64,000 bases of DNA from Synechococcus sp. PCC 7335 (GTDB lineage: Bacteria > Cyanobacteriota > Cyanobacteriia > Phormidesmidales > Phormidesmidaceae): the NCBI RefSeq assembly GCF_000155595.1, contig NZ_DS989905.1, positions 1 to 64,000 on the forward strand, in the 5' to 3' direction. The translations under genes and the position numbers were made by a program. Positions within the stretch are counted from its first letter, which is position 1. The number at the start of each line of letters is the position of its first letter. The notes under the pieces are model-generated. The model ran no database searches, was not told the DNA's origin, and was given only the letters and a program-made list of their open reading frames with translations. This document shows positions 1,536-61,761 of this stretch, one piece after another.

Positions 1536-1643
1536 CTATTGTTTGCCTTGTTGTAGCAATCTCTCGCAATCGCGATTAGGGTCTAGGCTAATGCCATTAG
1601 GTAGGCGGGTATTGCATAAAAAGGCTTCTGTTAGCTGTTCCAT
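1536..1643 (-). pseudogene. shifted second copy of the terminal module of the adjacent pentapeptide protein
   Basis: Directly behind the NACHT gene, in another frame, 36 codons read MEQLTEAFLCNTRLPNGISL and then DPNRDCERLL. This nearly repeats the last residues of the upstream protein (EQLIEALLCNTCLREGISL, DPDRDC). The copy starts inside the upstream 3' end, so the two are a tandem duplication of roughly 108 bp that has slipped out of frame. It is probably not translated separately. It suggests the natural C-terminus was longer (ERLLQQGKQ). Confidence 0.55.
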
Positions 1644-4324
1644 CGTCTCCCGCAATCACGGTCAGGATCTAGGCTAATACCTTCACGAAGACAGGTGTTG
1701 CAAAGTAGCGCTTCTATTAGCTGCTCCTTAGTAACGTTCCTAGCTTCACGCAGATTGGTTTTGAGCAGAATGGCTCCGCGCAGGTTAGCTAAGCGCAGGT
1801 TGGTTTCGCGTAGGTCAGCTTCACTCAAGTTGGCTTCACTCAAGTTGGCTCCGCTCAGATCGGCTCCGCGCAAGTTGGCTCTGCTCAAGTTGGCTTCGCG
1901 CAAGTTGGCTTCGCGCAAGTTGGCTTCGCGCAAGTTGGCTTCACGCAGGTCGGCTCCCATTAAATCTCGGTTGATAAGAACCGAACTAGATAGGTTTAAA
2001 CGTACTAGGCTGCAAAGAGATGCTAGATTCTCAACATCTACTCTCTGTCCCTGCAAACGTCCTATCCACGCCCCAAACGATACCCGAGTAGGCCACTCTA
2101 CTGTTGAAATGTCTTTAGTCACTGAAGAACAAATACCCAACACAGCTAGAAGTGCCTCTTCCGCATGAATCGCTCTTTGATTCGCTTCATAGAATCTAAG
2201 TGACGGCTCAATCTTCTCCATCGGCATTCCCCGCCGAAGCATTACGGCGATTAGCTCACTAAACGTTTTCTGCCACTTAGCTACCTGTTTCACAGGACAC
2301 AAAGCCACCTCATCTCTTAAGAAATCCAACAGATAAACGTCTATACGAGTTGGGCCACATACCTCTGCCCAATGCTGCAAAGCGTCTCGCTGACTCCATC
2401 CTTCCTCTATATCTTCAGCGCGGCGCGCTAGCTGCTTTTGAATTCGAGACACCGCCCGGACAATCCGTCGAGCAGTCAGATACTCGCTAAAGCTTTTGTG
2501 GGTGAACTCAAATGTTCTCTGATCGCTTCGTTGGCCACTTTGTCGAAAGTAAAAGGCAACAAGTAGTCGAGTAACACCTAGCTCAGCGCCTTCCTCAAAA
2601 TCGCTCAGAAGCTTACTCAGACCGCTGCGCTCGCAGTGCAATTCGATTTCTTGAATAGTGGTTGTACGGCCACCGCCATGCCACGCCGCCAGCGCGATCT
2701 CTTCTAACACTCGTATAAAATGCGCTTTTGACATCGAGGTGAGCGCACGGTGCCGACCGCTGTCTTCGTAGCCTCGTTCATAGACCGCATCCAGCAAATC
2801 CGCATAGACAGTATTTAAGTTTGTCGCCGCCGAGAGGGTAAGCTTTCCTGCTACATAACTCAGGGCCACTAAGTAATTTAATAGAGGCTGCGCTGTTATC
2901 TCAGTCAAGCTGGCCGTTTTTAACACTCCTGGCATGGCAGAATAGTTTTGCTTTACCGCCACACCATACTTGCTCCACCAATCGCCTCGCTGATCTCTTG
3001 ATAGCAAGCCGTTAGGGTCAATGTAAGGCTCACCTTTTACTTCCTTTCGTTCGTTCTTTGGAAGAAGGTACGGCAAGACATGCAGAATTTGATGCTGCTC
3101 TCTGAAAGATTCTTGGACAACGACTTCTCTGCCGGTGATAATCACCTGAAGGCGGGTCGTTCGATAGTTAAATCGACTGACCTTGTCCTGCACTTCTCGA
3201 ACAAAGGACTGCGCTGTTTCTCTTGCTATTTTCCCTTGCAGCGCCAGCTCGTCTAAACCGTCGAATATTACCAGCAGTCTGCTCCCCTCACTCTCAGGAT
3301 CAAGGGGGTTATGTTTCAGATAGTGGTCGTATCGGATAAACTCATCTACTGCTTTAACTAGGTCTCCAGTAGGTGTGAATTGGTGAAGTGGAACAAACAA
3401 AACTGGGAACTCACCTCGTTGAGCGTGTTCAGCCGCATAGACTTTGGCAAACGACGACTTTCCAGCGCCTGGACCTCCGCTGATTACTCGAATCGCATCT
3501 TGCTGTTCCGCCTTGCGCAGCCACCCCCTCAGCTCAGTAGCGAGGTCTACCACTACACGTTCTGGTTTAGGTTCCGCACTCTCATATGCTTTGGCTATCG
3601 AGGAAGACTCTTGGCTAGGCTGCTGGCGCTTGTAGTAGCCTCTGAGCGGAATATAGACATCTTTGAGACCAAAGGCCTCGAACATCATGGGTTCCTCGAT
3701 CTGCTTTTGCAGCCAGGAGGCGTACAGTCGCCAGCCTTGTTCTCGCTCTGTCGCCTCGGTGAAGGGCGTTTTTACGGCGGCGGTGATACTACTATAGGTT
3801 TGAGAATGGCGTCGCCACTCTTCGTGCAAGGCGAAGGTGAAGTAAGCGGGTAAGCGATTGCTAACGGTTTCTGATTGAACCGCATCCAGGCCTACACCCA
3901 TCAGCCACTGCTTTACGGGGGTTTGTAGACGACTAACAACGCTCAACTGCTCTGGATGTTCAAAGAAGTTAGCTGTAATTTGCAGCTCGCTCGTTTCTAG
4001 CGATAGATCCAGTTGCTCGGTAAGCGTGGCGATGTCTACAGGCACCTCTTTCATCAAAAACTGACTCTCGGCTACCAGTTGGAAGGTCGCTCTGCTCAAT
4101 GAATTATAGATTAGTGCCCAGGACAGTTCTGCTGGGTTCTTACTATCTAGACCAATTGCGGACAGTACATCGACAGCGTCTTTCCCCAGTCCTATCCATT
4201 GCCCGGTTGCCGCATCTACCCCGGCTTTGCCTAGCGCTTTAAACAAGTCTTTGAAGTTTGTCTTTAACGGTTTATTCCAGACAGAGATAGGTTTGGTAAC
4301 CGTCAGACCAGATGAGCTTGACAT
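1631..4324 (-). CDS. NACHT-domain NTPase with C-terminal pentapeptide repeats (NLR-like)
   Basis: An 897-aa STAND-type ATPase. A helical N-terminal region (1-260) of unrecognised type is followed by Walker A GGPGAGKSSFAK near residue 285 and Walker B LLVIFDGLDEL near 355, the extended acidic motif typical of NACHT proteins. A sensor-like region follows (IITGREVVVQESF). Residues ~650-760 form a helical spacer, and from ~800 onwards at least twelve A(D/N)LRxxN pentapeptide units (LREANLREANL and similar) build a quadrilateral beta-helix, ending in a cap with two cysteines. NACHT plus a repeat sensor is the bacterial NLR layout, often anti-phage, but cyanobacteria also have many such proteins of unknown role. 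Defence is inference. The 3' end is altered by a tandem duplication. Confidence 0.8.
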   Translation of the reverse strand: MSSSSGLTVTKPISVWNKPLKTNFKDLFKALGKAGVDAATGQWIGLGKDAVDVLSAIGLDSKNPAELSWALIYNSLSRATFQLVAESQFLMKEVPVDIATLTEQLDLSLETSELQITANFFEHPEQLSVVSRLQTPVKQWLMGVGLDAVQSETVSNRLPAYFTFALHEEWRRHSQTYSSITAAVKTPFTEATEREQGWRLYASWLQKQIEEPMMFEAFGLKDVYIPLRGYYKRQQPSQESSSIAKAYESAEPKPERVVVDLATELRGWLRKAEQQDAIRVISGGPGAGKSSFAKVYAAEHAQRGEFPVLFVPLHQFTPTGDLVKAVDEFIRYDHYLKHNPLDPESEGSRLLVIFDGLDELALQGKIARETAQSFVREVQDKVSRFNYRTTRLQVIITGREVVVQESFREQHQILHVLPYLLPKNERKEVKGEPYIDPNGLLSRDQRGDWWSKYGVAVKQNYSAMPGVLKTASLTEITAQPLLNYLVALSYVAGKLTLSAATNLNTVYADLLDAVYERGYEDSGRHRALTSMSKAHFIRVLEEIALAAWHGGGRTTTIQEIELHCERSGLSKLLSDFEEGAELGVTRLLVAFYFRQSGQRSDQRTFEFTHKSFSEYLTARRIVRAVSRIQKQLARRAEDIEEGWSQRDALQHWAEVCGPTRIDVYLLDFLRDEVALCPVKQVAKWQKTFSELIAVMLRRGMPMEKIEPSLRFYEANQRAIHAEEALLAVLGICSSVTKDISTVEWPTRVSFGAWIGRLQGQRVDVENLASLCSLVRLNLSSSVLINRDLMGADLREANLREANLREANLREANLSRANLRGADLSGANLSEANLSEADLRETNLRLANLRGAILLKTNLREARNVTKEQLIEALLCNTCLREGISLDPDRDCGRRWNS

Positions 4325-4696: not shown

Positions 4697-6013
4697 TCAT
4701 TTATCAGAAGAATCCAGTACTGCAGTTAGTTCTTGAGCAAAGTGACCTTCTGGTTCAGCTTGAAGCAACTTAGTTACAAAGGTACCAAGCTTTGTCTTGC
4801 TACTGATCTCAGTGTCCTCCTCAAATAAAGCGACCAGCTTATCCACAGCTGCGCTCCGGTTAAGACAGTAGTGCATATTCCTATCAATGGCCTGTTTTCT
4901 TTCCTCAAATCTTTCGCTAATCCGATCTTGAATCTCGGCTTGTAGTTGAGACAGTTCATTCTCTAAGCCTTCGTCTCTACCTAGAAACTCAGTACGCCAT
5001 TTGTGTTCAATCTCACACAACCAAAAGTTTAAAGGGGCATCATAGGTTGCTTTTAAAATTATTCGTAGTAAAGCTTTCCGTGACTCGGCGCTCTCCAAGG
5101 AAGAAGACCAAAGCAGTTTGCAATATTTCTGAGCATCCGGCTCAATGTCAGGCTCCTTATCAGGCTCAGTCTCGATAGTTTGGCTCCAGTGACTACGAAA
5201 AGAAAACCATCCTTCATGAACAAGACTACGAATCTGTTCTATGGTAAACGCCATTCCTTGAAGCGCGTATATCTGCTGAATCTGAGCTTCGGTAAAGCCT
5301 CCAATATACTTAAGACGTAAAGCTGTCAGCTGATGAGAAAAGCTAGCATCTTTTAGATGACTCATTCCATATCCAATCTGATTTAGACAACCTTCTACTT
5401 TCTTGCTTTCTATTGAATTATTGTCAAACTCGTCTCTATCTTGATCAGAGAACCATTCATCTGCTAAACCAGCCTGGTTCAGCAGGAGACAGTAATTAAT
5501 AAGGCGACTTAAAGCACTGATACTATTGACATAGCGATCAGGACGAATATAACAATGTTGAAATATTACTGATAGCGATGTGAGTAAATTATCACTCAAC
5601 AACTCAGAAAAAGCTTTGTTTTCTTTCTGTGGTAGTTTTTGAGAGATCGCATAATTAAACCCTACCAAAGATCTTAAGACGTCACCATGTGGGTCGAAAA
5701 GCCCCATTATACGGCGATATATAAGAATGTCCTTCAAAGACGAGCTGCCAGATGAGCTTTCAGGGTGTGAAAGCTCTACCTCTCTTCGACCAATCTTCTC
5801 TAACAACTCGCTTTTGGAAGTATAACCAAGGTCATTTGCTAGTTTGTCTAACCTGTCCCAGGCTGTATCAGAGATTGAAACATTACGTCGCTTCCTCTTT
5901 CTCTCTTCACTCAAAGTCGGCGGCCGCCCGCGCTTCGCTTTATAAGAAGAAACTAAAGAAGGTCTTTCAGGAATTGCAAGTTCCTCAGGATCAGTTTTTG
6001 CAACGATCAACAT
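4697..6013 (-). CDS. ribbon-helix-helix DNA-binding protein with large helical C-terminal region, 438 aa
   Basis: Residues ~25-75 are very basic (KAKRGRPPTL, RKRKRRNV) and then show a ribbon-helix-helix-like segment: NVSISDTAWDRLDKLANDLG followed by YTSKSELLEKI. The remaining ~350 residues are mostly helical and charged, with no recognised enzymatic motif. They include HLKDASFSHQLTALRLKYIGG and an acidic EPDKEPDIEPDAQ linker near 285. The family is unknown to me. RHH proteins of this size are often plasmid-borne in cyanobacteria. Start at ATG 6013; no strong ribosome site is visible. The upstream region contains short palindromes such as CGTAT-AGAA-ATACG that could be operators, which is inference. 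Confidence 0.65.
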   Translation of the reverse strand: MLIVAKTDPEELAIPERPSLVSSYKAKRGRPPTLSEERKRKRRNVSISDTAWDRLDKLANDLGYTSKSELLEKIGRREVELSHPESSSGSSSLKDILIYRRIMGLFDPHGDVLRSLVGFNYAISQKLPQKENKAFSELLSDNLLTSLSVIFQHCYIRPDRYVNSISALSRLINYCLLLNQAGLADEWFSDQDRDEFDNNSIESKKVEGCLNQIGYGMSHLKDASFSHQLTALRLKYIGGFTEAQIQQIYALQGMAFTIEQIRSLVHEGWFSFRSHWSQTIETEPDKEPDIEPDAQKYCKLLWSSSLESAESRKALLRIILKATYDAPLNFWLCEIEHKWRTEFLGRDEGLENELSQLQAEIQDRISERFEERKQAIDRNMHYCLNRSAAVDKLVALFEEDTEISSKTKLGTFVTKLLQAEPEGHFAQELTAVLDSSDK

Positions 6014-6306: not shown

Positions 6307-6558
6307 CTAGCGAACGATGTCCACGACGGTGCCGTATGCCCGCTTTCCAATTCTGCTAATTCCGCGTAAGCTGCTGCCTTCAACGTAGGTCTGTAAGATC
6401 AGTTTTACCTGCTCTGAGGTTACTTGGCGTCGATCGTACAGCGTATCAAAGGTTTCGGTAAACGTTCGACGACAGGCTGTACAACGATATCGCTGACTAC
6501 CTTTACTGGTCTTACCGTGCTTGTGGGGTGTGGGATGATCGCAGAAAGGACAATCCAT
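6307..6558 (-). pseudogene. IS1-family InsA-like zinc-ribbon fragment
   Basis: 83 residues with two CxxC pairs (CPFC and CTAC), then RRTFTETFDTLYDRR and a helix-turn-helix-like end (GSSLRGISRIGKRAYGTVVDIV). This is the N-terminal, DNA-binding part of IS1-type transposases (InsA). The catalytic InsB part is absent: the frame ends at 6307 and the flanking sequence shows no continuation. A different IS1-like stump lies at 38550. Confidence 0.7.
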
Positions 6559-6942: not shown

Positions 6943-7196
6943 GCGGGGAATTGGACCTCAAAGAGATGAAGGCCGTTCTCTATAGTTAAGTTTTCCTTAG
7001 AGTGATTGATGTGAGGACTGTTTAGTAAAGCTGTTCATCGACGGTTTTAGGGCAGGGCAGAAGCATGCCCGTGGTCCGTGCCATGTGTAGTTTGGTCCTA
7101 CGTGGCTTGTCTTAGTGATAGTTCTGTATTCAAAAGCCTTCGCTGAATGAATAGCAAGGTACGCATACGAAGAAGATATGCTGCAACCAAGCGGCG

Positions 7197-7223
7197 AAGG
7201 TCTTCTGATCTTTAGAAGACCTT
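7197..7223 (+). promoter_or_regulatory. 10-bp perfect hairpin in the cassette leader, copy 1
   Basis: AAGGTCTTCT, loop GATCTTT, AGAAGACCTT: a perfect stem with a 7-nt loop, about 100 nt upstream of the leader ORF, and not followed by a T-run. The identical structure is at 10077-10103. It may be part of the 5' UTR structure. Confidence 0.55.
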
Positions 7224-7325
7224 GTTGGGAAACTAAAGATGGCTCAATCTCAAAAACCAGGGATCGCTAATTCTGTCTGTAAAAAGTGAATAATGCCTAA
7301 CGCTTATAGGCAAGGAGTTTGGTTT

Positions 7326-7376
7326 ATGAACAACAACACCAACATTTCTCAGTACTTTGGAAATAGCGATGAATAG
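7326..7376 (+). CDS. 16-aa leader peptide overlapping the next gene, copy 1
   Basis: The frame MNNNTNISQYFGNSDE has a good ribosome site (AAGGAG, 8 nt before the ATG), itself flanked by a small stem (TGCCTA 7294-7299, TAGGCA 7307-7312). Its stop overlaps the ATG of the 153-aa gene (GCGATGAATAG), which has no ribosome site of its own. That arrangement is the usual sign of translational coupling. The peptide is identical in copy 2. It has no recognisable RiPP signature; whether the peptide itself acts is unknown. Confidence 0.55.
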   Translation: MNNNTNISQYFGNSDE

Positions 7377-7830
7377 AGTCTATTCCGTAGAGGATGGAGT
7401 GTACGTCCTAGTGAAGCAGTTTTCACAAGATCTGTTTCAGGCAAGCAAAGTAGTTTCCAAAGAAGAGTGGGACTTCCAGATTAGAAGTGCGAAGGCTGGT
7501 CAGGGCCTAATTATCCTGAGATTGGACTACTTCCCACTTCCTTCCTATACATTGTCACTAGGCGACATCAGCAATTGGGAAGATCTAAGATCGAGTCGAG
7601 ATCAACTGACTTGTATCTGGCGTAAAATGCCTTCTCATGTTCAATCAGCCTTTTCTCAGGAGGAAATGATTGCTCTGTTTACGATGATATTGGAGAGGCT
7701 TTTGCTTAGCTGGACACAGGGTAGCTATGGTGACTTTGAAGTGACGATCAATCGTTTAAAAAATCGGTTGAGGATCGTTGTTGGTGGTACACCTAGCAAC
7801 ATTCAGTACATTCATATCTGCCAAAAGTAG
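7369..7830 (+). CDS. cassette protein of unknown family, 153 aa, copy 1
   Basis: Starts at the ATG overlapping the leader stop (MNRVYSVEDGVYVL); a longer frame from a TTG at 7357 is less likely. No signal peptide or membrane segment. It looks like a small alpha/beta cytosolic protein: LIILRLDYFPLPSYTLSLGD, a helical AFSQEEMIALFTMILERLLL, and a closing strand pair LRIVVGGTPSNIQYIH. The copy-2 protein is about 74% identical by hand count. Its position before a membrane oxidase in both copies suggests an accessory, sensor or regulatory role for that oxidase. I do not recognise the family. Confidence 0.75.
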   Translation: MNRVYSVEDGVYVLVKQFSQDLFQASKVVSKEEWDFQIRSAKAGQGLIILRLDYFPLPSYTLSLGDISNWEDLRSSRDQLTCIWRKMPSHVQSAFSQEEMIALFTMILERLLLSWTQGSYGDFEVTINRLKNRLRIVVGGTPSNIQYIHICQK

Positions 7831-7896
7831 CCCTGATCTAGCAAAGGCTCCAACTGAATAAGAACGGCTCAGCCGGAGAGCAGATACCTGTTACGA

Positions 7897-7942
7897 CGCT
7901 GTATTGAGATGACTTATCTCGATGCAGCGTTTTTTGTTTTTT
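7897..7942 (+). terminator. intrinsic terminator/attenuator between the cassette genes, copy 1
   Basis: A 14-bp stem with two G-U pairs (CGCTGTATTGAGAT, loop GACTT, ATCTCGATGCAGCG) followed at once by TTTTTTGTTTTTT. It lies between the 153-aa gene and the oxidase gene, 26 nt before the GAAAGAGGA ribosome site. The same structure stands at the same place in copy 2, so it probably sets the ratio of the two products or acts as an attenuator. Confidence 0.75.
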
Positions 7943-7967
7943 GTTTAATCGAAAGAGGATAAATTCA

Positions 7968-9191
7968 ATGAACGTCTCAGTAGAAGATGCCATCTCAAAA
8001 ACAGAAACCTTGGTCAATTCCGATAGTTGCGATAATCCACGCGAAGCTGTCAAGCGCAAAGTTTTCTCAGATAGAAAGTGGTTTCAAAATTTGTTTACAG
8101 AGCTAAGTGGGAAGCCCTACGCAGGCCAGCAACCAGCTTTCCAAAAAACGTCAACCAACCAACTAATCCAAAAGGCGTTCGTCTTTTGCTGTTCAATTTG
8201 CGTGATGTTTTGGTCGACAACGAGCGGTTATATCTGGATGACCTTCCTAGGACAGCTGCTATTGCTTCATAGTTTTCGGTGGTTTCGTCTGACGTTCATG
8301 CATGCTTGTAGTCACAATGCAGGCATTAGATCCAATCGACATGCGAATGTCTTATTGGGTTCGCTTGTCGCAGTTCTTACGCTGTCTGGCGACTTCGATA
8401 CTTACTGTAAAGACCATCGTCATCAGCACCATCAAATTGGTTCGAGGCCAGGCCATTTATCGCTGCTACAAAAGAATGACGAGACATATCGATATCTACT
8501 GGAGGCGGCGGGTTTCCAGCTCGGTGCAACAGTCAGTGAATCTTGGCAACATCTCATCAAGACACTGTGCTCACCTACTTTTCACGCTGAACGCCTATGC
8601 TCAAGACTACAAGCTACCTTTCTATCTCCTAACAAAGCTCATGATCTAGCTGCGGTGGCTATTTGGCTAGTGCTAATGTTACTCATTTACATCGAGCACA
8701 ATCCTTCATTTGCGATCGCATACCTAGTCACAGTGACTATCCTGTTTGAATGCAGTAGTCTACTTCGACAGTGCGTAGAGCACCGTTGGCCTGTGCCAGA
8801 TACGGGTGATCGCGGTCGGACAACTCTAGGCGTAATGACAAGTGCAATTATTCTCTGTGAGTCACCTCCGTGCCATACAGGTGAGGAATCACAATTAGAG
8901 TACTGGTTGTCGTGGGTGTGTTGGTGGGCACGAGTTTTCTTTTATCACTTACCTAGTCGGCTGTTGATTCTCACTGGTGATTCTCCTGTTCACGACTGGC
9001 ACCACCGTAACCCGTCTGGTGATTGGCCTAATAGCATTTACCACCGTCAAGCTGATGCGGAGCTGCCTGTAAATGAATGGGGCAAGTATCAGGAGACATT
9101 TGGCTTGCTTAGAGCAATTCAGATGACGTTCGTTACTCTAAGCTTCCAGTCTCCCAGAGATTTAAGCGACCAGTGCTCTGCAAAGGGCTGA
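7968..9191 (+). CDS. membrane fatty-acid-desaturase-like di-iron enzyme
   Basis: From ATG 7968, after AGAGGA at 7954-7959, a 407-aa integral membrane protein. The three histidine clusters of membrane desaturases/hydroxylases are visible: HACSH near residue 110, HRHQHH near 152 and HDWHH near 338, separated by hydrophobic segments at about 65-105, 118-140, 225-260 and 320-340. The substrate could be a fatty acyl chain, a carotenoid or another lipid; the sequence does not decide. The first ~20 residues (MNVSVEDAISKTETLVNSDS) match the start of the copy-2 oxidase although the bodies differ. It follows the 153-aa gene behind a terminator. Confidence 0.75.
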   Translation: MNVSVEDAISKTETLVNSDSCDNPREAVKRKVFSDRKWFQNLFTELSGKPYAGQQPAFQKTSTNQLIQKAFVFCCSICVMFWSTTSGYIWMTFLGQLLLLHSFRWFRLTFMHACSHNAGIRSNRHANVLLGSLVAVLTLSGDFDTYCKDHRHQHHQIGSRPGHLSLLQKNDETYRYLLEAAGFQLGATVSESWQHLIKTLCSPTFHAERLCSRLQATFLSPNKAHDLAAVAIWLVLMLLIYIEHNPSFAIAYLVTVTILFECSSLLRQCVEHRWPVPDTGDRGRTTLGVMTSAIILCESPPCHTGEESQLEYWLSWVCWWARVFFYHLPSRLLILTGDSPVHDWHHRNPSGDWPNSIYHRQADAELPVNEWGKYQETFGLLRAIQMTFVTLSFQSPRDLSDQCSAKG

Positions 9192-9253
9192 AGGTATGTG
9201 ATCACTTAGACTTGTGATTAATCAGCTCATGCCTAGTCCAAAGCGGTCATGCC

Positions 9254-9325
9254 GTTGCTTATCGCCAATATCTGAGTCAATGAGATCACGCAGCTTACTT
9301 AGAGGCTGAATACAGCACTCGAATT
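9254..9325 (+). pseudogene. decayed thermonuclease-family C-terminal fragment
   Basis: Translation gives VAYRQYLSQ, a stop, then DHAAYLEAEYSTRI. It matches the fragment at 58590 (VAYRQYLSN and AYLEAEAIA), a typical C-terminal part of staphylococcal-nuclease-like proteins. It is cut off by the end of an IS6-like remnant at 9326. Confidence 0.6.
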
Positions 9326-9722
9326 TGTCAGATATGGGTAGCCAAATATCGACGTATCATCACGAATGCGATCGCACCTTTCTCTATCTGTTTAAGCGGT
9401 CTGGAATAATGCTTGCAGTTTCTCACAGCTTGCTATGAAATGTTTTCTTCGGTCATGTAGAGACACGAGTTCTGTCATTCGCGTCCGAGGTCTTAAAAAG
9501 TTACTCACTTTATCCACTGCTCGACAGAATCGCTGCGCCGCATCAAATTCCCCAAAGCCCAGAGTAGGGTGATAGCGATGCTTGATACGCCGATGGTTTT
9601 GTTCGACTGGTTGGCGGTGCAGGGTCGCACCTCGTGCTCGACTTCCTCACCCAGTTCTTCCTCGATTGCTCTTGGATAGGACGCTAAACCATCAGTCGCC
9701 ACCTTCAATGCCAGAGCAGCAC
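9326..9722 (-). mobile_element. IS6-like transposase remnant with one intact end
   Basis: The terminal repeat TGTCAGATATGGGTAGCCA at 9326-9344 matches the ends of the copies at 55631 and 60800. On the minus strand, VATDGLASYPRAIEEELGE and EHEVRPCTAN are followed, after a frameshift, by the equivalent of PTLGFGEFDAAQRFCRAV and the C-terminal KLQALFQTA stop at 9392. The 5' half, including the zinc ribbon and first catalytic Asp, is missing. Not functional. Confidence 0.8.
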
Positions 9723-9788
9723 CGAATCTCGAATACGCAATCAAAAAGGACAAACAGAACGAAAATACTAGGGAATCAAAACTAGTTA

Positions 9789-9818
9789 CTACTTTTGGGA
9801 AATTTATCCCAAAAGTAG
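9789..9818. promoter_or_regulatory. palindromic operator, copy A
   Basis: CTACTTTTGGGA, 6-bp spacer, TCCCAAAAGTAG: a perfect 12-bp inverted repeat. The same sequence with the same spacing stands 50 bp before the RHH gene at 13295. It is followed here by a TATAGTATAATAG promoter-like stretch and an ATG at 9850 that stops after five codons, so the gene it once controlled seems to be lost. Confidence 0.65.
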
Positions 9819-9912
9819 CACACATATCAAAAAACTATAGTATAATAGTATGGTGTTACTAAATAGTGCTTTTGCCTTCTAATTGAGCTTTCCTTTGCGG
9901 CTTGTCAAAGAC

Positions 9913-10290
9913 GTTCATCGACGGTTTTAGGTCAGGGCAGAAACATGCCCGTGGCCCGTGCCATGTGTAGTTTGGTCCTACGTGGCTTGTCTTAGTGATA
10001 GTTCTGTATTCAAAAGCCTTCGCTGAATGAATAGCAAGGTACACATACGAAGAAGATATGCTGCAACCAAGCGGCGAAGGTCTTCTGATCTTTAGAAGAC
10101 CTTGTTGGGAAACTAAAGATGGCTCAATCTCAAAAACCAGGGATCGCTAATTCTGTCTGTAAAAAGTGAATAATGCCTAACGCTTATAGGCAAGGAGTTT
10201 GGTTTATGAACAACAACACCAACATTTCTCAGTACTTTGGAAATAGCGATGAATAGAGTCTATTCCGTAGAGGATGGAGTGTACGTCCTA
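9913..10290 (+). repeat. cassette 5' element, copy 2
   Basis: Second copy of the 378-bp element described at 7033, with four mismatches and no gaps. The hairpin is at 10077-10103 and the leader ORF at 10206-10256. Confidence 0.9.
10206..10256 (+). CDS. 16-aa leader peptide overlapping the next gene, copy 2
   Basis: Identical at DNA level to the copy-1 leader, with the same AAGGAG ribosome site and the same overlap with the downstream ATG at 10249. Conservation between copies whose downstream coding sequences have diverged favours a role in coupled translation. Confidence 0.55.
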   Translation: MNNNTNISQYFGNSDE

Positions 10291-10710
10291 ATGAAACAGC
10301 TTTCGCAAGATTTGCTTCAGGCAAGCGAAGCAGTTTCTAGAGAAGAGTGGGCCTTCAAGATTAAAAGCACGAGGGGCAGCCAGGGCCTGATTATCCTGAC
10401 ATTAGGCTACTTCCCATGTCCTTCCTATACATTGTCACTAGGCGACATCAGCAATTGGGAAGATCCAAGATGGAGTCGAGATCAACTGACTCATACCTGG
10501 CATAAAATGCCTCCTCACGTTCGAGCAGTTTTTTCTCAGAAGGAAATGGTTAATTTGTTCACGATGATTTTAGAAAGGCTTGTGCTTAGCTGGACGCGGG
10601 GTAGTCATGGTGACTTTGACGTTACGGTCAACTGTTCAAAAAATCGGTTGATGATTGTTGTTGGTGGTACACCTAGCGACCTTCAATACATCCATAGCTA
10701 CCAAAAGTAG
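10249..10710 (+). CDS. cassette protein of unknown family, 153 aa, copy 2
   Basis: Paralogue of the gene at 7369, the same length with no gaps and about 40 substitutions. Invariant stretches include MNRVYSVEDGVYVL, PSYTLSLGDISNWED, LFTMILERL, SWT and IVVGGTPS. The substitutions are mostly conservative, so the protein has been kept under selection. No known domain recognised. It is followed by a conserved terminator and the sterol-desaturase/SDR gene. Confidence 0.75.
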   Translation: MNRVYSVEDGVYVLMKQLSQDLLQASEAVSREEWAFKIKSTRGSQGLIILTLGYFPCPSYTLSLGDISNWEDPRWSRDQLTHTWHKMPPHVRAVFSQKEMVNLFTMILERLVLSWTRGSHGDFDVTVNCSKNRLMIVVGGTPSDLQYIHSYQK

Positions 10711-10772
10711 CGCTGCTTTAGTAAGGTTCCAACTGAATAAAAGGCATAGCCAGAGAGCAGTACCTGTTACGA

Positions 10773-10818
10773 CGCTGTATTGAGATGACTTTCTCGATGC
10801 AGCGTTTTTTGTTTTTTC
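10773..10818 (+). terminator. intrinsic terminator/attenuator between the cassette genes, copy 2
   Basis: CGCTGTATTGAGA, loop TGACTT, TCTCGATGCAGCG, then TTTTTTGTTTTTT: same stem and position as in copy 1, with one base deleted in the loop region. Confidence 0.75.
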
Positions 10819-10842
10819 TTTTAATCGAAAGAGGATAAATTC

Positions 10843-12207
10843 ATGAACAACTTAGTAGAAAATGCCATCTCAAAAGCAATGGCTTTAGCTGATTTTGATG
10901 ATCGTTTAATGACACCTATTGCTACATCTTCACACATCCAAAGCACAATTCTCTTTATCGTCTTAACAGCTATTTGGGCAGCAGCTACAAGACTATGTGT
11001 TGAGATAGCAAGAGATGGTTTCCATGTTCTTTCCCATTACATTCCCCGGTTATCACGGCACCATAACTGGCACCACAGAGTCTTTAAGCGTGATATGTCG
11101 AAAGTAAGCTCTGCACTGTATCAACGCTCTCAATGGCATCATGATGTGCCTGAGTCAGTGATAATGCTCATGATTGCTTTCTCGATATCTATCTCTTCAT
11201 TTCTGATTTCTGGCTGGTCTTCTTCATCAATTGGCAGTTTCTTATGCTTACTCTTCACTCTACATAGTCTTCTAATGGCTATTCTTAGGGGACTAGGATA
11301 CAAGTGGGCAATTGAGCAAGATCTGAATCATAAGCAGACAGAAAGTGTGGCTCATCCCGGTAAGTGGTGTGTCAACTGGAGCTACCATCAGCGTCACCAT
11401 TTTGAAAACCCTAACGCATATTTCAGTGGTATCTTCACCTTAGTAGATCGACTGCTCGGAACTGCTCTCTCCTTGAAAAGAAAAACTGTTGTCGTCACCG
11501 GAGCCTCCGGTAGTTTGGGCAAAAGCCTAATTGCTAGACTTATTCTAGAAGAGGCCAAAGTCATCGCACTCACTTCTTCACACACAAACCCTATAGAAGT
11601 AGAAGTTGATGGCAGGCTGGTACAGCTAAAGACAGTCCTTTGGAGTGTTGATAACCTAGATGCTCTAGACGAAGTTCTAAAGTCCGCTGACATCCTAGTT
11701 CTCAACCACGGAGTTAATCGTCGGGAACTTACAGAAGCAGCGGTGCTTGATTCTATTCGTGTGAATGCATTGTCATCATATGCTCTTCTAGACCGGTTTA
11801 CTCATACCGTCAAAACCGCTTTCGACGCAGCATGTAAAGAAGTCTGGGTAGTAACTTCAGAGGCGGAGGTGGCCTCTGCTAACAGTCCTGTCTACGAATT
11901 GAGTAAGCGGCTTCTTGGTCAGCTTGTGACATTCAAGCGAATTAATTCGCCATGCATTATTAGAAAGGTAGTTCCAGGTGGGTTTATCAGCAAAATGAGC
12001 CATGACAGTCGGCTCTCGTCTGACTGGGTGGCACAGCGAATCATTGAAGCTGTTAAGAAAGACGGGCGAAACATTGTGATCTCGCCTTATCGACCTTGGG
12101 TATATCTCTACTATCCTATGCACGAATGGCTAGTTTCAGCTTACGCTGAACAGTGGAGCAAGAGCCAAATTTCGCACGACGAATCTACAGATGGCTTGGA
12201 TGTGTAG
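10843..12207 (+). CDS. bifunctional sterol desaturase / short-chain dehydrogenase
   Basis: A 454-aa fusion. The N-terminal half is a membrane protein of the sterol desaturase/fatty acid hydroxylase family, with HVLSH near residue 60, HHNWHH near 73, WHH near 98 and HQRHH near 180, and hydrophobic segments around 35-55 and 105-150. From about residue 210 a cytosolic short-chain dehydrogenase begins with the nucleotide-binding motif VVVTGASGSLGKSL, an NHG motif (LVLNHGVN) and YELSK, the Tyr-x-x-x-Lys active site. The family is known in cyanobacteria; its substrate is not settled. The first ~20 residues (MNNLVENAISKAMALADFDD) match the start of the unrelated oxidase in copy 1. Confidence 0.85.
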   Translation: MNNLVENAISKAMALADFDDRLMTPIATSSHIQSTILFIVLTAIWAAATRLCVEIARDGFHVLSHYIPRLSRHHNWHHRVFKRDMSKVSSALYQRSQWHHDVPESVIMLMIAFSISISSFLISGWSSSSIGSFLCLLFTLHSLLMAILRGLGYKWAIEQDLNHKQTESVAHPGKWCVNWSYHQRHHFENPNAYFSGIFTLVDRLLGTALSLKRKTVVVTGASGSLGKSLIARLILEEAKVIALTSSHTNPIEVEVDGRLVQLKTVLWSVDNLDALDEVLKSADILVLNHGVNRRELTEAAVLDSIRVNALSSYALLDRFTHTVKTAFDAACKEVWVVTSEAEVASANSPVYELSKRLLGQLVTFKRINSPCIIRKVVPGGFISKMSHDSRLSSDWVAQRIIEAVKKDGRNIVISPYRPWVYLYYPMHEWLVSAYAEQWSKSQISHDESTDGLDV

Positions 12208-12267: not shown

Positions 12268-12312
12268 GCCCCTGCGTCTGATCTCTAAAGAGATCAGACG
12301 CAGGGGCTTTTT
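12268..12312 (+). terminator. strong intrinsic terminator
   Basis: A perfect 19-bp stem (GCCCCTGCGTCTGATCTCT, loop AA, and its complement) followed by TTTTTC. It closes the second cassette about 60 bp after the stop. The stretch before it (TTTCTTT) is also consistent with weak use from the other side. Confidence 0.85.
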
Positions 12313-13217: not shown

Positions 13218-13245
13218 CTACTTTTGGGAGGATATTCCCAAAAGT
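13218..13245. promoter_or_regulatory. palindromic operator, copy B
   Basis: CTACTTTTGGGA, 6-bp spacer, TCCCAAAAGT: same core and spacing as the site at 9789. It ends 49 bp before the ATG of the RHH-like gene at 13295, where an autorepressor site would be expected. Confidence 0.65.
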
Positions 13246-13294: not shown

Positions 13295-13690
13295 ATGTCC
13301 ATAACCAAAGAAAACTCTGGCCTCGAGAATCTTCTTAAAGGTAGAGGAACCAAGAAAAAGCTAGGTCATAAGTCTTATAGTGTAAAGCTTTCACCAAGTG
13401 AAAAGAAAAGAGTAGAAGATATTGCTGAAAGTTTTGACTGTACTTACGGCAACAGCGGTTCAATTTCGTGTCTACTCACAAAATTAGCAACTAAGGAATT
13501 GATGGTTGTTTCTTCGCCTCCTATTTGGGAAAAATCTCCATGCCATAGTGAAGCTACTTCAGATAAAAGCAAAGTTTTGCCTGATCCTAAAAGTGTTATG
13601 CAAAGAAGTCTTCCAGGTATAAGTAAGGAGAAATTAGAGAAAGCCAATAGTGGTCATACAGACGAGGCTATTAGTATTAGGAAGAATTAA
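13295..13690 (+). CDS. small RHH-like DNA-binding protein, 131 aa
   Basis: After a basic N-terminus (GRGTKKKLGHK), residues ~28-65 read YSVKLSPSEKKRVEDIAESF then GSISCLLTKLATKEL, the strand-helix-helix order of ribbon-helix-helix proteins. The C-terminal 60 residues are polar and probably disordered (SEATSDKSKVLPDPKSV). A palindromic operator lies just upstream, so autoregulation is likely. A second copy of that operator at 9789 suggests it once controlled another gene near the cassette. I cannot tell whether it is a plasmid partition, replication-control or antitoxin protein. Confidence 0.6.
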   Translation: MSITKENSGLENLLKGRGTKKKLGHKSYSVKLSPSEKKRVEDIAESFDCTYGNSGSISCLLTKLATKELMVVSSPPIWEKSPCHSEATSDKSKVLPDPKSVMQRSLPGISKEKLEKANSGHTDEAISIRKN

Positions 13691-13998: not shown

Positions 13999-15673
13999 AT
14001 GCAACGCTCTCTAGCATCCCTCACGAAGCACATACACGTGATGATGGACCTCTCGACGCTGGCTCAGATTCTGTTGCGCTCAGGTCTGCCATCAAGTCAT
14101 ACTAGTATTGATGGCTTGAGATTTTCAGAGAAAAGCCTTTCTAACTTACTAGAGTTAATCAATTCAAATCATATTCTGTTAGAGGAGCCTTCCTACACTT
14201 ATGTGAGTATGCGTGACTATATAGAATTATTAGAAGAAGATCTAGGTACAGAAGAAAAGACAGCCATAATCAACGCTTCAAAAGATTTAATAAGAATAAG
14301 TGATAAAATTTCTTATGAACTGTTAAGAGATCAAGCCAATAAACTTCAATTGCTTTCTGAGAATAGGCAACTGAAGCATCGAGAATACATAGACTTAGTT
14401 CTAGCAAGCGTCTCAAATACAAAATTCTACATTACTAGTAACAAGAAAGATGTTGAGTCGTTCGTTTCTTTCTTTAAAAGGCATAAGAAAAAGCCTGAAT
14501 GTCAGAACGAAATACCTTACGAAATTGATGAGTTACAAATTCATGATATAGACAGTTTTGTTAATTACATTGAAAGCGAAACAAGTTTTTTTGATATAAT
14601 TGCTAATCAGGATACAATTACCGTCTACACGAGTTTAGACAAACCAATTACTATCAAGAGAGGCTCAACTCCTGTAGACTTTGCTTATAAGATACATACA
14701 GAATTGGGGCATTCCTGCTATCGTGCAAAGGTAACTCGCAACTATGGTCAAGGTCCAGAAAATTGGGAAATCATAGAGTGCGAACTAAGTTTTATGTTGG
14801 AAAATGGAGATAAGGTTGAAATTATAAAGAGGGATGGCGGCGAGAGAAAACCTGATATTGCTTGGAAAAAGTTTGTTGTTACTACTAAAGCGGGGGGATT
14901 CTATCAGTTCTTTTTGGCATAAAGAAAATATAAAAAGAGGAGCTACTATTCTTAAACGAGAGTTTAGTAAATGCTACTTAGGAGGGAACAAGTTTGAATA
15001 CATTTCTCGGTGCCTTAATTGCGGAAGTATTGAAGAACTTCAACAGCAGTTAGGCTTAGGAAGAATAAGAATTGAAGATATTCGAAAAGCAGAAAAACGT
15101 TACTCAGACACGTTTATAAGACCTCAGATTGGCGTGTCAAAGTCATTTGGTTTAAATGAGCATAAAGATGTATCTGACATTCCTGCTGTTCAGGGTTTAA
15201 CTAGTAGCTTTTCAGGTATGCTTTTAATTTCAAAATGTTGCTATCCAATGCCAAAAGATCGAATATGTGGAGTGGAAGGCGAAAGGTCTGTTCACATCCA
15301 CAAAATAGGCTGTTCTGAAATCTCGGAAGTTGATTTCGAGAAGAAATTGCCTCTAACTTGGAACTCTGATGAATGTACAGCTGTTCTTAAACTTAAATTG
15401 AAAGATAGGGAAGACATTCTCAGATACATTCTTAACAAGTGGGCTGAAAACAACAATGTACGCGTGAATGTATCAAGCGTTTTACCAGATAAAAGGCTAT
15501 ATCCAACTTTGGATGCAACTTCTATTGTAAATGTTTGCGTATTGTTTAGCTCTATACGGCTCCTTAAATCAATGATTAAAGAGATTGAAGATATTCCAGA
15601 TACAATTCAAGTTACTATTAGAAGCATATTTCCAGGTCCTGCCGCATTTTTAGACCCAGAAAGGTTTATATAA
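13999..15673 (+). pseudogene. Rel/SpoT-like TGS-RIS-ACT protein without catalytic domains, frameshifted
   Basis: Two overlapping frames (13999-14922 and 14834-15673) read as one protein if one G is removed from a run of six at 14892-14897. The N-terminal ~190 residues are helical and unrecognised, and show no HD or synthetase motif. Next comes a TGS domain (ITVYTSLDKPITIKRGSTPV, DFAYKIHTELGHSC, LENGDKVEII), the KKFVVTTKA stretch that follows TGS in Rel enzymes, a cysteine-containing region like the Rel zinc-finger/RIS domain (LLISKCCYPMPKDRICGV, VHIHKIGC), and an ACT-like end. It therefore has the regulatory half of a long RSH enzyme and not the enzymatic half. The DNA is more AT-rich than its neighbours. 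Confidence 0.65.
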
Positions 15674-55630: not shown

Positions 55631-56624
55631 TGTCAGCCCTGAGTAGCCAAAATATAGCATCGGCCAGCTGACTGCTAGGCTGGGGGCGATCAGCTCATCC
55701 TTACCAATCGCTCATGGATTGCCCACACTGCCCATCGACTCGTGTCTCACCACTCCAGCGGAAAACCCATCTAGGCTATACCATGTTTCGGTGCAAGCAG
55801 TGTCGCCGGACTTTCAATGAGCGCACGGATAGCCCCTTCAATTTTATCGAAGTTCCCACCGATATTATCTTTCAGGTGTTGCTCTGCCGCGTCCGCTATA
55901 AGCTCAGCTATCGGGATGTAGCCGAGTTCTTTCTGCTGAGAGGCTTCCAATTCACCCATGAAACAGTGCGGTTTTGGGAGGAACGGTTTTTGCCTTATTT
56001 TACCGACCAAATACGGACAAAGCGAAAGGGTAAAGTCGGTAAGATCTGGTTGATTGACGAGACCTATGTTCGAGTAAAAAGAGCGTGGTGCTATCTCTAC
56101 AGGGGCATTGATGAGGATGGCAACCTGGTAGACGTCCGTCTCAGCAAAACTCGTGATATGGCTGGAACCAAAGCCTTTTTTGCCCAGGCCATCGGCCTTC
56201 ACGAGGACTCACCCGAGAAGGTAGCCACCGATGGTTGGGCATCCTATCCTCGGGCAATCAAAGAAGAATTGGGCAAGGGCACTGAGCACGAGGTTCGACT
56301 CTGCACCGCCAATCCTGTAGAGCAGAGCCATCGGCGAATCAAGCACCGTTATTACCCAACCCTGGGCTTCGGCGAGTTCGATGCGGCCCAGCGGTTCTGC
56401 CGAGCGGTAGATGAAGTGGGAAACTTTTTGAGGCCGCAATCGCGCATGACAGAGTTCGTATGTCTCAGTGAGCGTAGGCAAAGATTCGTCAAAGGGATCG
56501 AGGAATTAGAAGCGTTATTCAAGGCTGCTTAGGCCAGATTGAAGAGGGGGCGATGGCGCAGCCCGCTGTAGGCGATCGCAGCAATGCCAATTTGACTATA
56601 TTATTTGGCTACCCAGTTCTGACA
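55631..56624 (+). mobile_element. IS6-like element with zinc-ribbon transposase
   Basis: Terminal repeats TGTCAGCCCTGAGTAGCCA (55631) and, complemented, TGTCAGAACTGGGTAGCCA (ending 56624). The flanking 8-mers do not match. It begins 80 bp after atpC. Confidence 0.8.
55714..56532 (+). CDS. IS6-like transposase with N-terminal zinc ribbon
   Basis: 272 aa. Two CxxC pairs (MDCPHCPSTR and FRCKQCRRTFNERTD) form a zinc ribbon. The helical DNA-binding part VPTDIIFQVLLCRVRYKLSY is followed by the DDE core: KIWLIDETYVRVKRAWCYLY (Asp), KVATDGWASYPRAIKEELGK (Asp), NPVEQSHRRIKHRYYPTLGF (Glu). All residues present, so it could be active. A close copy is at 60868 on the other strand. Confidence 0.9.
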   Translation: MDCPHCPSTRVSPLQRKTHLGYTMFRCKQCRRTFNERTDSPFNFIEVPTDIIFQVLLCRVRYKLSYRDVAEFFLLRGFQFTHETVRFWEERFLPYFTDQIRTKRKGKVGKIWLIDETYVRVKRAWCYLYRGIDEDGNLVDVRLSKTRDMAGTKAFFAQAIGLHEDSPEKVATDGWASYPRAIKEELGKGTEHEVRLCTANPVEQSHRRIKHRYYPTLGFGEFDAAQRFCRAVDEVGNFLRPQSRMTEFVCLSERRQRFVKGIEELEALFKAA

Positions 56625-60807: not shown

Positions 60808-61761
60808 CTGAGTAGCCACAATTCACCTGCTCATCAGTAGTGTGATCGCACCTACCCCTATTTCTGTTTAGGAAGCTTGGAACAGATCTTCCAATTCTTC
60901 AACTCCCTTCAGTAACTGCGCTCTGCGATCGCCAAGGCACACGAATTCTGCCATTCGGCTACGAGGCCTCAGGAAGTTGCCAACTTCATCGACTGCTCTG
61001 CAAAATCTCTGCGCAGCCTCAAACTCACCGAACCCCAGGGTTGGATAATAGCGGCGTTTGATGCGCCGATGACTTTGTTCAACTGGATTGGCTGTGCAGG
61101 GGCGGACTTCATGCTGAACTTTCTCACCTAAGTCTTCTTCAATCGCCCGTGGGTAAGATGCTAAGCCATCGGTCGCGACCTTGTCAGGAGCGTCCTCGTG
61201 CAGATCGATGGCTTGAGCAAAGAAGGCTTTGGTGCCAGCCATGTCGCGAGTTTTGCTAAGGCGAACGTCTACCAGATTGCCATCTTCATCAATGCCTCGG
61301 TAGAGGTAGCACCACTGCCCACAGACTTTCACGTAAGTCTCGTCAATCATCCATAATTTGCCGACTTTGCCCTTTCGCTTTGTTCTAATCTGCTCTGTAA
61401 AATGAGGTAGGAAACGTTCCTCCCAATCCCTTGCAGTTTCGTGGGTAAACTGAAAGCCTCTAAGCAAAAAGAACTCAGCCACATCCCGATAGCTGAGCTT
61501 ATAGCGGACGCGGCAGAGCAACACCTGGAAGATAATGTCTGTTGGGACTTCCACAAAATTAAATGGCGTATCTGTGCGCTGATTGAACGTCCGGCGACAG
61601 CGTTTGCAGCGAAACATGGTATAGCCTAGATGGGTTTTGCGCTGGAGCTGCGAGATATGAGGCGAGTGGCAATGCGGACAATCCATGAGGTAGAGGTAGA
61701 GCTGATCGCACCTAGCCTATCAGCTGGCCGAATCCTTTATTTTGGCTACTCAGGGCTGACA
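60800..61761 (-). mobile_element. IS6-like element with zinc-ribbon transposase, second copy
   Basis: Ends TGTCAGGACTGAGTAGCCA at 60800 and TGGCTACTCAGGGCTGACA ending 61761. No matching flanks; it lies between a hydrolase stump and a DUF421 stump. Confidence 0.85.
60868..61686 (-). CDS. IS6-like transposase with N-terminal zinc ribbon
   Basis: 272 aa, closely similar to the protein at 55714: MDCPHCHSPHISQLQRKTHL with CxxC pairs, KLWMIDETYVKVCGQWCYLY (Asp), KVATDGLASYPRAIEEDLGE (Asp), NPVEQSHRRIKRRYYPTLGF (Glu). Complete and probably functional. Confidence 0.9.
   Translation of the reverse strand: MDCPHCHSPHISQLQRKTHLGYTMFRCKRCRRTFNQRTDTPFNFVEVPTDIIFQVLLCRVRYKLSYRDVAEFFLLRGFQFTHETARDWEERFLPHFTEQIRTKRKGKVGKLWMIDETYVKVCGQWCYLYRGIDEDGNLVDVRLSKTRDMAGTKAFFAQAIDLHEDAPDKVATDGLASYPRAIEEDLGEKVQHEVRPCTANPVEQSHRRIKRRYYPTLGFGEFEAAQRFCRAVDEVGNFLRPRSRMAEFVCLGDRRAQLLKGVEELEDLFQAS

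What the first reader, a model, noticed from the sequence alone, without database searches (positions are those of the whole stretch)
7033..12207. Duplicated cassette that swaps its membrane oxidase
Two neighbouring copies carry the same parts in the same order: 378-bp 5' element, 16-aa leader ORF, 153-aa unknown protein, terminator, then a membrane di-iron oxidase. The two oxidases belong to different families (fatty-acid desaturase type, and sterol desaturase fused to SDR), yet both have histidine clusters for a di-iron centre. It looks like a module that pairs one unknown protein with interchangeable lipid-modifying oxidases. I know of no described system with this layout.
Basis: partly seen in the sequence, partly recalled or inferred. 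Interest (0 to 1): 0.8.

Follow-up and report, generated by a model that had tools for sequence, protein, structure and literature searches.

The report
Small-protein cassettes paired with membrane oxidases
Two neighbouring gene cassettes in a cyanobacterium pair an undescribed small double-domain protein with two different membrane oxidases, and distant relatives of that small protein often sit next to immune-receptor-like signalling ATPases and small membrane proteins.

Summary
The duplicated cassette is real and as described. The 153-aa protein is a tandem repeat of a ~70-aa alpha-beta-beta-alpha domain with no significant match in the Pfam, NCBIfam, PHROGs or PADLOC scans. With window rows left out, a profile of cyanobacterial relatives still finds both copies (E 1e-8, 4e-11). 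Relatives occur in 21 of 387 other genomes of the class. Of 22 such loci examined, 13 (six genera) are divergent from an HTH-STAND NTPase (12 NB-ARC type, 1 NACHT); all 13 intergenic regions carry TGTGAG boxes, against 2 of the other 9. Ten of 22 are followed by a small membrane-protein gene, against 5 of 208 other genes. None of the 22 has a homologue of either oxidase nearby. A further locus found from the oxidase side (G176) may repeat the window's order: remote tandem-like protein, terminator, broken desaturase homologue. So 'one unknown protein with exchangeable membrane partners' is partly supported; 'interchangeable lipid oxidases' is shown only here, substrates unknown. The near-identical 5' elements and similar first ~12 codons of the oxidases suggest duplication plus gene conversion, with a second oxidase joined in frame. 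Best reading: a variant of a STAND-linked signalling module whose membrane output gene became an oxidase.

The parts
7033..7410 (+). 5' element, copy 1 (leader ORF 7327-7377 inside; extends into codon 14 of the 153-aa ORF)
   Evidence: 374 of 378 positions identical to copy 2, 247-bp perfect run 7164-7410; no full-length match in 230 other genomes
7327..7377 (+). 16-aa leader ORF MNNNTNISQYFGNSDE, overlaps start of the 153-aa ORF
   Evidence: sequence; identical in both copies; coding status not tested otherwise
7369..7830 (+). 153-aa tandem alpha-beta-beta-alpha protein, copy A (domains about residues 5-76 and 94-153)
   Evidence: domain bounds (profile contains these rows); independent test
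7895..7941 (+). intrinsic terminator between protein A and oxidase 1
   Evidence: fold -24 kcal/mol, z -6.7, U-tract
7968..9191 (+). oxidase 1: FA_desaturase-family membrane di-iron protein (407 aa)
   Evidence: PF00487 1.4e-8; H112, H116, H154, H155, H206, H272, H342, H345, H346 invariant with the G064 and G049 homologues
9505..9825 (-). transposase remnant between the cassettes (IS6-like; the name is recalled)
   Evidence: resembles the window's own transposases 55714-56532 and 60868-61686, by eye
9791..9816 (.). palindrome ACTTTTGGGA-N6-TCCCAAAAGT upstream of cassette 2
   Evidence: core CTTTTGGGAN6TCCCAAAAG occurs only here and at 13221 in the whole genome (plus their repeat copies); reversed-pattern control 0
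9913..10290 (+). 5' element, copy 2
10207..10257 (+). 16-aa leader ORF, copy 2
10249..10710 (+). 153-aa tandem protein, copy B
   Evidence: 74% identical to copy A; profile without window rows E 4e-11
10771..10816 (+). intrinsic terminator between protein B and oxidase 2
   Evidence: fold -23.6 kcal/mol, z -7.5
10843..12207 (+). oxidase 2: sterol desaturase-type membrane di-iron domain fused to SDR (454 aa)
   Evidence: NF005653 437 bits, PF04116, adh_short; most local matches to cyanobacterial homologues of both halves start at residue 33-51, a few at 19-27
12268..12312 (+). terminator after oxidase 2
   Evidence: fold -39 kcal/mol, z -10.7
13220..13245 (.). second copy of the palindrome, upstream of ORF 13295-13690
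13295..13690 (+). 131-aa protein, ribbon-helix-helix-like by eye only (no Pfam or NCBIfam match); candidate binder of the palindrome
   Evidence: assignment inferred
4697..6013 (-). 438-aa protein with weak N-terminal RHH match, on the divergent side of cassette 1
   Evidence: PF01402 E 0.0067, 16.8 bits, below cut-off 20.5
1631..4324 (-). NNH3-NACHT-pentapeptide STAND-type protein (897 aa), on the divergent side of cassette 1
   Evidence: PF22735 2.2e-44, pentapeptide 1.6e-24; NACHT 26.6 bits, just below the 26.7 cut-off

Best explanation
The cassette is a variant of a cyanobacterial signalling module. Its commonest form is an HTH-STAND NTPase, divergently transcribed from a small protein made of one or two alpha-beta-beta-alpha domains, often followed by a small membrane protein. 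In this genome no fused HTH-STAND gene is next to the cassette and the membrane partner is a di-iron oxidase. The unit was duplicated, and a second oxidase (a paralogue of a common sterol desaturase/SDR) was joined in frame to 12 or more N-terminal codons of the first. Proposed mechanism (inferred): a stress or invader signal raises transcription of the small protein; it is translated through the overlapping leader; most transcripts stop at the terminator behind it and a controlled fraction reads through to the membrane oxidase. The small protein acts as adaptor or regulator of the membrane enzyme, which then alters a membrane lipid, pigment or other hydrophobic substrate. Shown: tandem-domain structure, family, gene order, terminators, STAND linkage in other genomes. 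Not shown: physical interaction, read-through, regulation, substrate.
For: Family: a profile without window rows finds copies A and B at E 1e-8 and 4e-11 (Z 5000; best of 2000 shuffles of A 9.3 bits against 33 and 41); also without the G189 rows 3e-7 and 3e-10. A family domain of G176, aligned with 32 rows in all, is modelled with pLDDT 92.5. Layout: 13 of 22 examined loci are divergent from HTH-STAND; matches to the NB-ARC profile number 3-26 per genome in the 14 genomes searched. TGTGAG (either strand) in 13 of 13 STAND-linked regions and 2 of 9 others (p 2e-4). Small membrane gene downstream in 10 of 22 against 5 of 208 (p 1.6e-8). G176: 131-aa tandem-like ORF, terminator (-31.4 kcal/mol, z -8.0), desaturase homologue in two pieces, divergent HTH-like regulator by eye. 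G064: the desaturase homologue is divergent from an EAD4 protein followed by nSTAND1-WD40, and a second sterol-desaturase-like protein is divergent from a related pair (STAND genes 68% identical).
Against: No fused HTH-STAND is next to the window cassettes; the nearest STAND (1631-4324) is 3 kb from the first 153-aa gene, beyond a weak-RHH gene and an IS fragment, and the window has only one TGTGAG (7009), about what chance gives. The TGTGAG motif was found in the same regions on which it was then counted, so its p is descriptive. No oxidase homologue lies near any of the 22 family loci. The G176 131-aa ORF is weak: E 0.17 with profile A5 and 1.6 with A3 among 547 ORFs; hhalign 12% against A5 and 0.6% against A1; shuffles reaching its score 2, 6 and 0 of 1000, control proteins 0, 1 and 0 of 54, for A5, A3 and a tandem profile. 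Loci are not independent (5 of g65, 3 of g3, 2 of g91). Membrane neighbours of any size give a smaller contrast (10 of 22 against 35 of 208, p 0.003). Terminators within 330 bp are about as common behind family genes (8 of 22) as behind others (50 of 210). Of the 9 loci not counted as linked, L062, L123, L138 and L141 have no STAND or HTH-like divergent partner; L125 and L126 face unnamed large proteins, L130 an HTH-like one by eye; L122 is at a contig end; L136 has an 857-aa HTH/NB-ARC-type gene with IS remnants between.
Confidence: 0.42

Rival explanations
1. Promoter and 5' region capture. The 5' element, leader and 153-aa gene are only the expression head of a segment duplicated by IS activity at a plasmid end; two unrelated oxidase genes happen to lie behind it, and the small protein has no functional tie to them.
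For: Most homologues of oxidase 2 do not align to its first 32 or more residues, and its first 12 codons resemble those of oxidase 1 (31 of 36 nt). IS remnants at 6307-6558 (InsA-like zinc ribbon, below cut-off) and 9505-9825. The 247-bp identical run ends inside codon 14, not at a functional border, which fits gene conversion. The combination with oxidase 2 is seen only here.
Against: The 153-aa genes stay open and show purifying selection (dN/dS 0.46, p 0.006). Relatives elsewhere also lead membrane-protein genes. In G176 a tandem-like gene precedes a homologue of oxidase 1.
Confidence: 0.3
2. Conflict (defence) module: the oxidases are membrane-acting effectors controlled by STAND sensors, the small tandem protein being an effector-associated adaptor.
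For: STAND linkage in 13 of 22 loci; NACHT-pentapeptide gene on the divergent side in the window; EAD4 protein plus nSTAND1 beside the desaturase homologue in G064, and a related STAND module beside a sterol-desaturase-like gene there.
Against: PADLOC has no match at E 0.1 for copy A or either oxidase. Two conflict-system surveys contain no occurrence of 'desaturase' or 'NfeD' in the main text (term searches). STAND genes are numerous in these genomes, and the nSTAND1 count in G064 was not measured.
Confidence: 0.2
3. Specialised metabolism: the FA_desaturase-like oxidase hydroxylates or desaturates a small metabolite and the cassettes are parts of a biosynthetic plasmid locus.
For: The G049 homologue sits among an SDR-like, a cupin-like and other enzyme-like genes (by eye); weak GntB similarity.
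Against: No biosynthetic genes were seen between or next to the window cassettes (ORF list by eye; eight proteins scanned). No ORF of the G049 stretch around its desaturase matches the family profiles (best E 2.8).
Confidence: 0.1

Closest known systems
HTH-NB-ARC-WD40 STAND NTPases of cyanobacteria (AP-ATPase-like)
   Same: In 12 of 22 family loci a gene of this type is the divergent neighbour (in L128 and L129 the WD40 part is a separate ORF)
   Different: None is next to the window cassettes; the window has an NNH3-NACHT-pentapeptide protein and a weak-RHH gene instead
NF005653 / PRK07424 bifunctional sterol desaturase/short chain dehydrogenase
   Same: Oxidase 2 passes the curated cut-off (437 against 336 bits)
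   Different: Extra N-terminus not aligned by most homologues, preceded by the cassette; the own chromosome holds another copy (41% identical)
FA_desaturase (PF00487)
   Same: Oxidase 1 passes the gathering score (35.2 against 29.7); histidines conserved with two full-length homologues
   Different: A rare branch in the genomes searched (own, G049, G064 and a broken copy in G176), far below the NCBIfam equivalog cut-offs
EAD / nSTAND1 conflict systems (Kaur et al. 2020, PMC7159879; passages only)
   Same: STAND NTPases with partner genes in multicellular bacteria; an EAD4 protein and nSTAND1 beside an oxidase 1 homologue in G064
   Different: Neither window copy matched any Pfam model at E 0.1, and 'desaturase' does not occur in that paper's main text

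Membership tests
Cyanobacterial alpha-beta-beta-alpha small-protein family (defined here) | Significant match to a profile built without the window's rows | tested here: met
   E 1e-8 and 4e-11 at Z 5000, best shuffle 9.3 bits; as separate halves: C-terminal 5e-9 and 2e-7, N-terminal 39 (copy A, not significant) and 0.002 (copy B). The rows were collected with profiles that held window rows.
Cyanobacterial alpha-beta-beta-alpha small-protein family (defined here) | Divergent HTH-STAND with TGTGAG boxes between (commonest context, 13 of 22) | tested here: not met
   Window: one TGTGAG at 7009; the divergent side holds a weak-RHH protein and a NACHT-type protein
NF005653 bifunctional sterol desaturase/SDR | Score above curated cut-off over both halves | tested here: met
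   437 against 336 bits, model 7-410 of 414
FA_desaturase PF00487 | Gathering score and conserved histidine clusters | tested here: met
   35.2 against 29.7 bits; histidines
FA_desaturase PF00487 | Acyl-lipid desaturase activity | not testable with these tools
   substrate unknown
Known anti-phage defence systems (PADLOC) | Match to a system model for the small protein or the oxidases | tested here: not met
   0 families for copy A and both oxidases at E 0.1; copy B not scanned there
Known solved folds (PDB) | Clear structural match of the domain model | tested here: inconclusive
   model is of a G176 domain; Foldseek none at E 0.001; VIA best Z 4.3
Described RNA families (Rfam 15) | 5' element above gathering score | tested here: not met
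   0 matches in the window

The most novel reading that the evidence does not exclude
An undescribed cyanobacterial two-part output module: a small tandem alpha-beta-beta-alpha protein, controlled elsewhere by NLR-like HTH-STAND NTPases through a TGTGAG operator, couples the signal to an exchangeable membrane partner that can be a small membrane protein, an NfeD-like protein or a di-iron membrane oxidase, giving a receptor-controlled enzymatic change of the membrane.
Probability: 0.25. Interest if true: 0.8.

Novelty: new variant of a known kind. Interest (0 to 1): 0.55.

Why it matters
It exposes a small-protein family without a significant match in the searched libraries that marks a set of HTH-STAND loci in cyanobacteria, and gives a testable route from STAND sensing to membrane chemistry. 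If the oxidases are the output, the substrates of two orphan membrane di-iron enzymes could be found by studying one locus.

Tried and rejected
Single-protein searches for the 153-aa protein gave nothing useful in plasmids (one 27%-identity hit, E 7), viral contigs (none) and little in genome contigs (with profile A1, one locus, Leptolyngbya sp. FACHB-8). PHROGs gave copy B one weak hit (E 0.047), not used. The first AlphaFold model (3 rows) had pLDDT 45 and was not used. A hemocyanin match (E 9e-11, no stretch passing on its own) was set aside as spurious because of the very long repetitive target. Early hits G176:C115 (L010) and G035 (L058, one stop) were dropped as not family-like on reading. 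From the weakest hits (G127, G087, G142, G185) were dropped, while G068, G100, G230 and G169 (E 5e-4 to 3e-3) were taken into profile A3 because they looked family-like; their later strong scores, and those of the other A3 rows (G176, G210, G274, G318, G189), are by construction. Twelve genomes are new finds: G374 (a near copy of G318) at 6e-19, the other eleven at 8e-8 to 7e-4. Of the non-own loci I examined 22 and left out G176:C74, a 63-aa fragment. Only 8 of the divergent proteins were scanned (L124, L127, L128, L131, L137 STAND/WD40; L125, L126, L130 without a hit at 1e-5); the L013 NACHT protein was scanned. L129, L132-L135, L139 and L140 were assigned from their N-terminal sequences, L129, L139 and L140 also by profile. 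Gene calls in the loci are crude (ORFs of 100 aa or more, greedy). Codon positions 22/22/22 first suggested no selection; counting by sites gave dN/dS 0.46. The Asn-rich leader suggested attenuation; I did not test it. No VIA or Foldseek match is claimed as a fold relationship. Paper searches; no paper describing the cassette showed in those listings of an open-licence library; PMC7159879 and PMC8195603 were seen as passages only, the others as listing and abstract start. On checking, I corrected the 5' element to 4 differences (one search had used 5) and lowered the main confidence from 0.45 to 0.42 because the weaker controls for the G176 ORF are now told.


Full report
Observation. The two 5' elements differ at 4 of 378 positions, while the 153-aa ORFs differ at 66 of 459 (Fisher p 6e-14); a 247-bp run 7164-7410 is identical and ends inside codon 14. 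At 14% divergence such a run has a probability of about 3e-17, so either the element is under very strong constraint or it was homogenised by gene conversion. Since the run ends at no functional border that I know of and also covers synonymous sites, I prefer conversion. No full-length relative of the element was found in 230 other genomes (four gave matches of 27-42 nt), so constraint cannot be tested.

The oxidases. Oxidase 1 belongs to a rare FA_desaturase branch: 3 of 143 genomes at E 1e-10 (own, G049, G064) and 3 of 247 genomes with a profile at E 1e-15 (own, G064, and G176 in two broken pieces). Oxidase 2 belongs to a common family: 81 of 95 genomes at E 1e-20, own included, some matches covering only the SDR half, with a chromosomal copy in the same genome at 41% identity. 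Most local matches that cover both halves start at residue 33-51 (a few at 19-27), so the front of oxidase 2 is probably foreign; its first 12 codons match those of oxidase 1 at 31 of 36 positions, with fading similarity to about codon 20. This points to in-frame joining of a second oxidase to a duplicated head.

The 153-aa protein. Alone it has no significant library match (PADLOC for copy A only). Iterated profiles (A1, A2, A3, A5) show that it is two copies of a ~70-aa domain that occurs singly or in tandem in other cyanobacteria: 22 of 388 genomes, own included, at E 0.001 (14 of 159 genera). Nine of the 21 other genomes had given rows to the profile; twelve are new finds. With the window's rows left out, the profile still finds copies A and B (E 1e-8, 4e-11). 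The N-terminal domain of copy A alone is not significant, that of copy B is weakly so. The model of a G176 domain is confident (pLDDT 92.5) and has no clear match in the PDB.

Context of the family. I examined 22 non-own loci. Thirteen are divergent, 315-701 bp away by crude gene calls, from an HTH-STAND gene: L124, L127, L128, L129, L131-L135, L137, L139, L140 (NB-ARC type) and L013 (NACHT; its HTH match, E 0.015, is below cut-off). G049 (L136) has an 857-aa HTH/NB-ARC-type gene on the divergent side with IS remnants between; G210 (L122) starts at a contig end, and an HTH-NB-ARC gene of G210 lies at another contig's end (L173), so the two may belong together. L125, L126 and L130 face proteins without a P-loop motif. 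Matches to the NB-ARC profile number 3-26 per genome (14 genomes), so this linkage is far above chance, although only six genera contribute to the 13. TGTGAG boxes (either strand) are found in 13 of 13 linked regions and 2 of 9 others, a motif noticed in these same regions; in g3 loci they form palindromes such as CTCACATGAGTGAG. Of nine further HTH- or NB-ARC-type paralogues looked at from the other side (L172-L180), none had a family gene beside it (best stray match E 0.014); one of them, L173, breaks off about 400 bp upstream. Downstream, 10 of 22 family genes are followed within 250 bp by a co-directional gene of at most 160 aa with a predicted membrane segment, against 5 of 208 other genes of the same stretches; for membrane neighbours of any size it is 10 of 22 against 35 of 208. 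One of the ten is ferric-reductase-like (1.9e-4, below the cut-off) and one is NfeD (9e-8). No ORF in the 22 loci is a homologue of either oxidase (248 ORFs, E 0.01).

Oxidases beside the family or beside STAND genes elsewhere. In G176 the broken desaturase homologue is preceded on the same strand by a 131-aa ORF and a strong hairpin with a T-rich tail, and on the divergent side by a 346-aa protein with an HTH-like start (by eye). Sequence support for the 131-aa ORF is mixed: E 0.17 (A5) and 1.6 (A3) among 547 ORFs, hhalign 12% (A5) and 0.6% (A1), shuffles reaching its score 2, 6 and 0 of 1000 and control proteins 0, 1 and 0 of 54 for A5, A3 and a tandem profile. With its position, length and two-part pattern I count it as probable, not shown. 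In G064 the desaturase homologue is divergent from an EAD4 protein followed by nSTAND1-WD40, and a second sterol-desaturase-like protein (PF04116) is divergent from a 318-aa protein followed by a STAND gene 68% identical to the first. How often this would arise by chance was not measured.

Regulation in the window. The palindrome core CTTTTGGGA-N6-TCCCAAAAG occurs only upstream of cassette 2 and upstream of ORF 13295 in the whole genome, plus their terminal-repeat copies; this suggests that the 13295 product controls itself and cassette 2 (inferred). Cassette 1 has a weak-RHH gene and a NACHT-type gene on its divergent side, which may be a split form of the usual HTH-STAND partner (inferred, low confidence).

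Verdict. Function, substrate and coupling remain inferred.

Noticed in passing
window 1-41451: Contig C2 (774,507 bp) ends in a 41.45-kb terminal inverted repeat, 99.9% identical with 11 mismatches and 27 gap openings: a linear replicon or an assembly artefact.
   Followed up: partly
window 13999-15673: TGS-domain (RelA/SpoT-like) ORF split in the left repeat arm but one 557-aa ORF in the right arm; small indels between the arms look like sequencing errors.
   Followed up: partly
window 7252-7293, minus strand: 27-42-nt similarity to three genomes (L182-L184), perhaps a relic of a coding sequence reading IHFLQTELA (translated by eye; DUF2949 recalled, not searched).
   Followed up: no
L049 and L051 (G064): Two membrane oxidases of different families, each divergent from a related STAND module.
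   Followed up: partly
L050 (G049:C1:472000-488000): Oxidase 1 homologue in a cluster with SDR-like, cupin-like and other enzyme-like genes, flanked by transposase-like ORFs (by eye).
   Followed up: no
L131-L135: Family gene followed by an NfeD-like (by eye; Pfam only 0.06 for L135, none for L131) small protein ending VEDTSTLIIEV or close to it in one genus.
   Followed up: no
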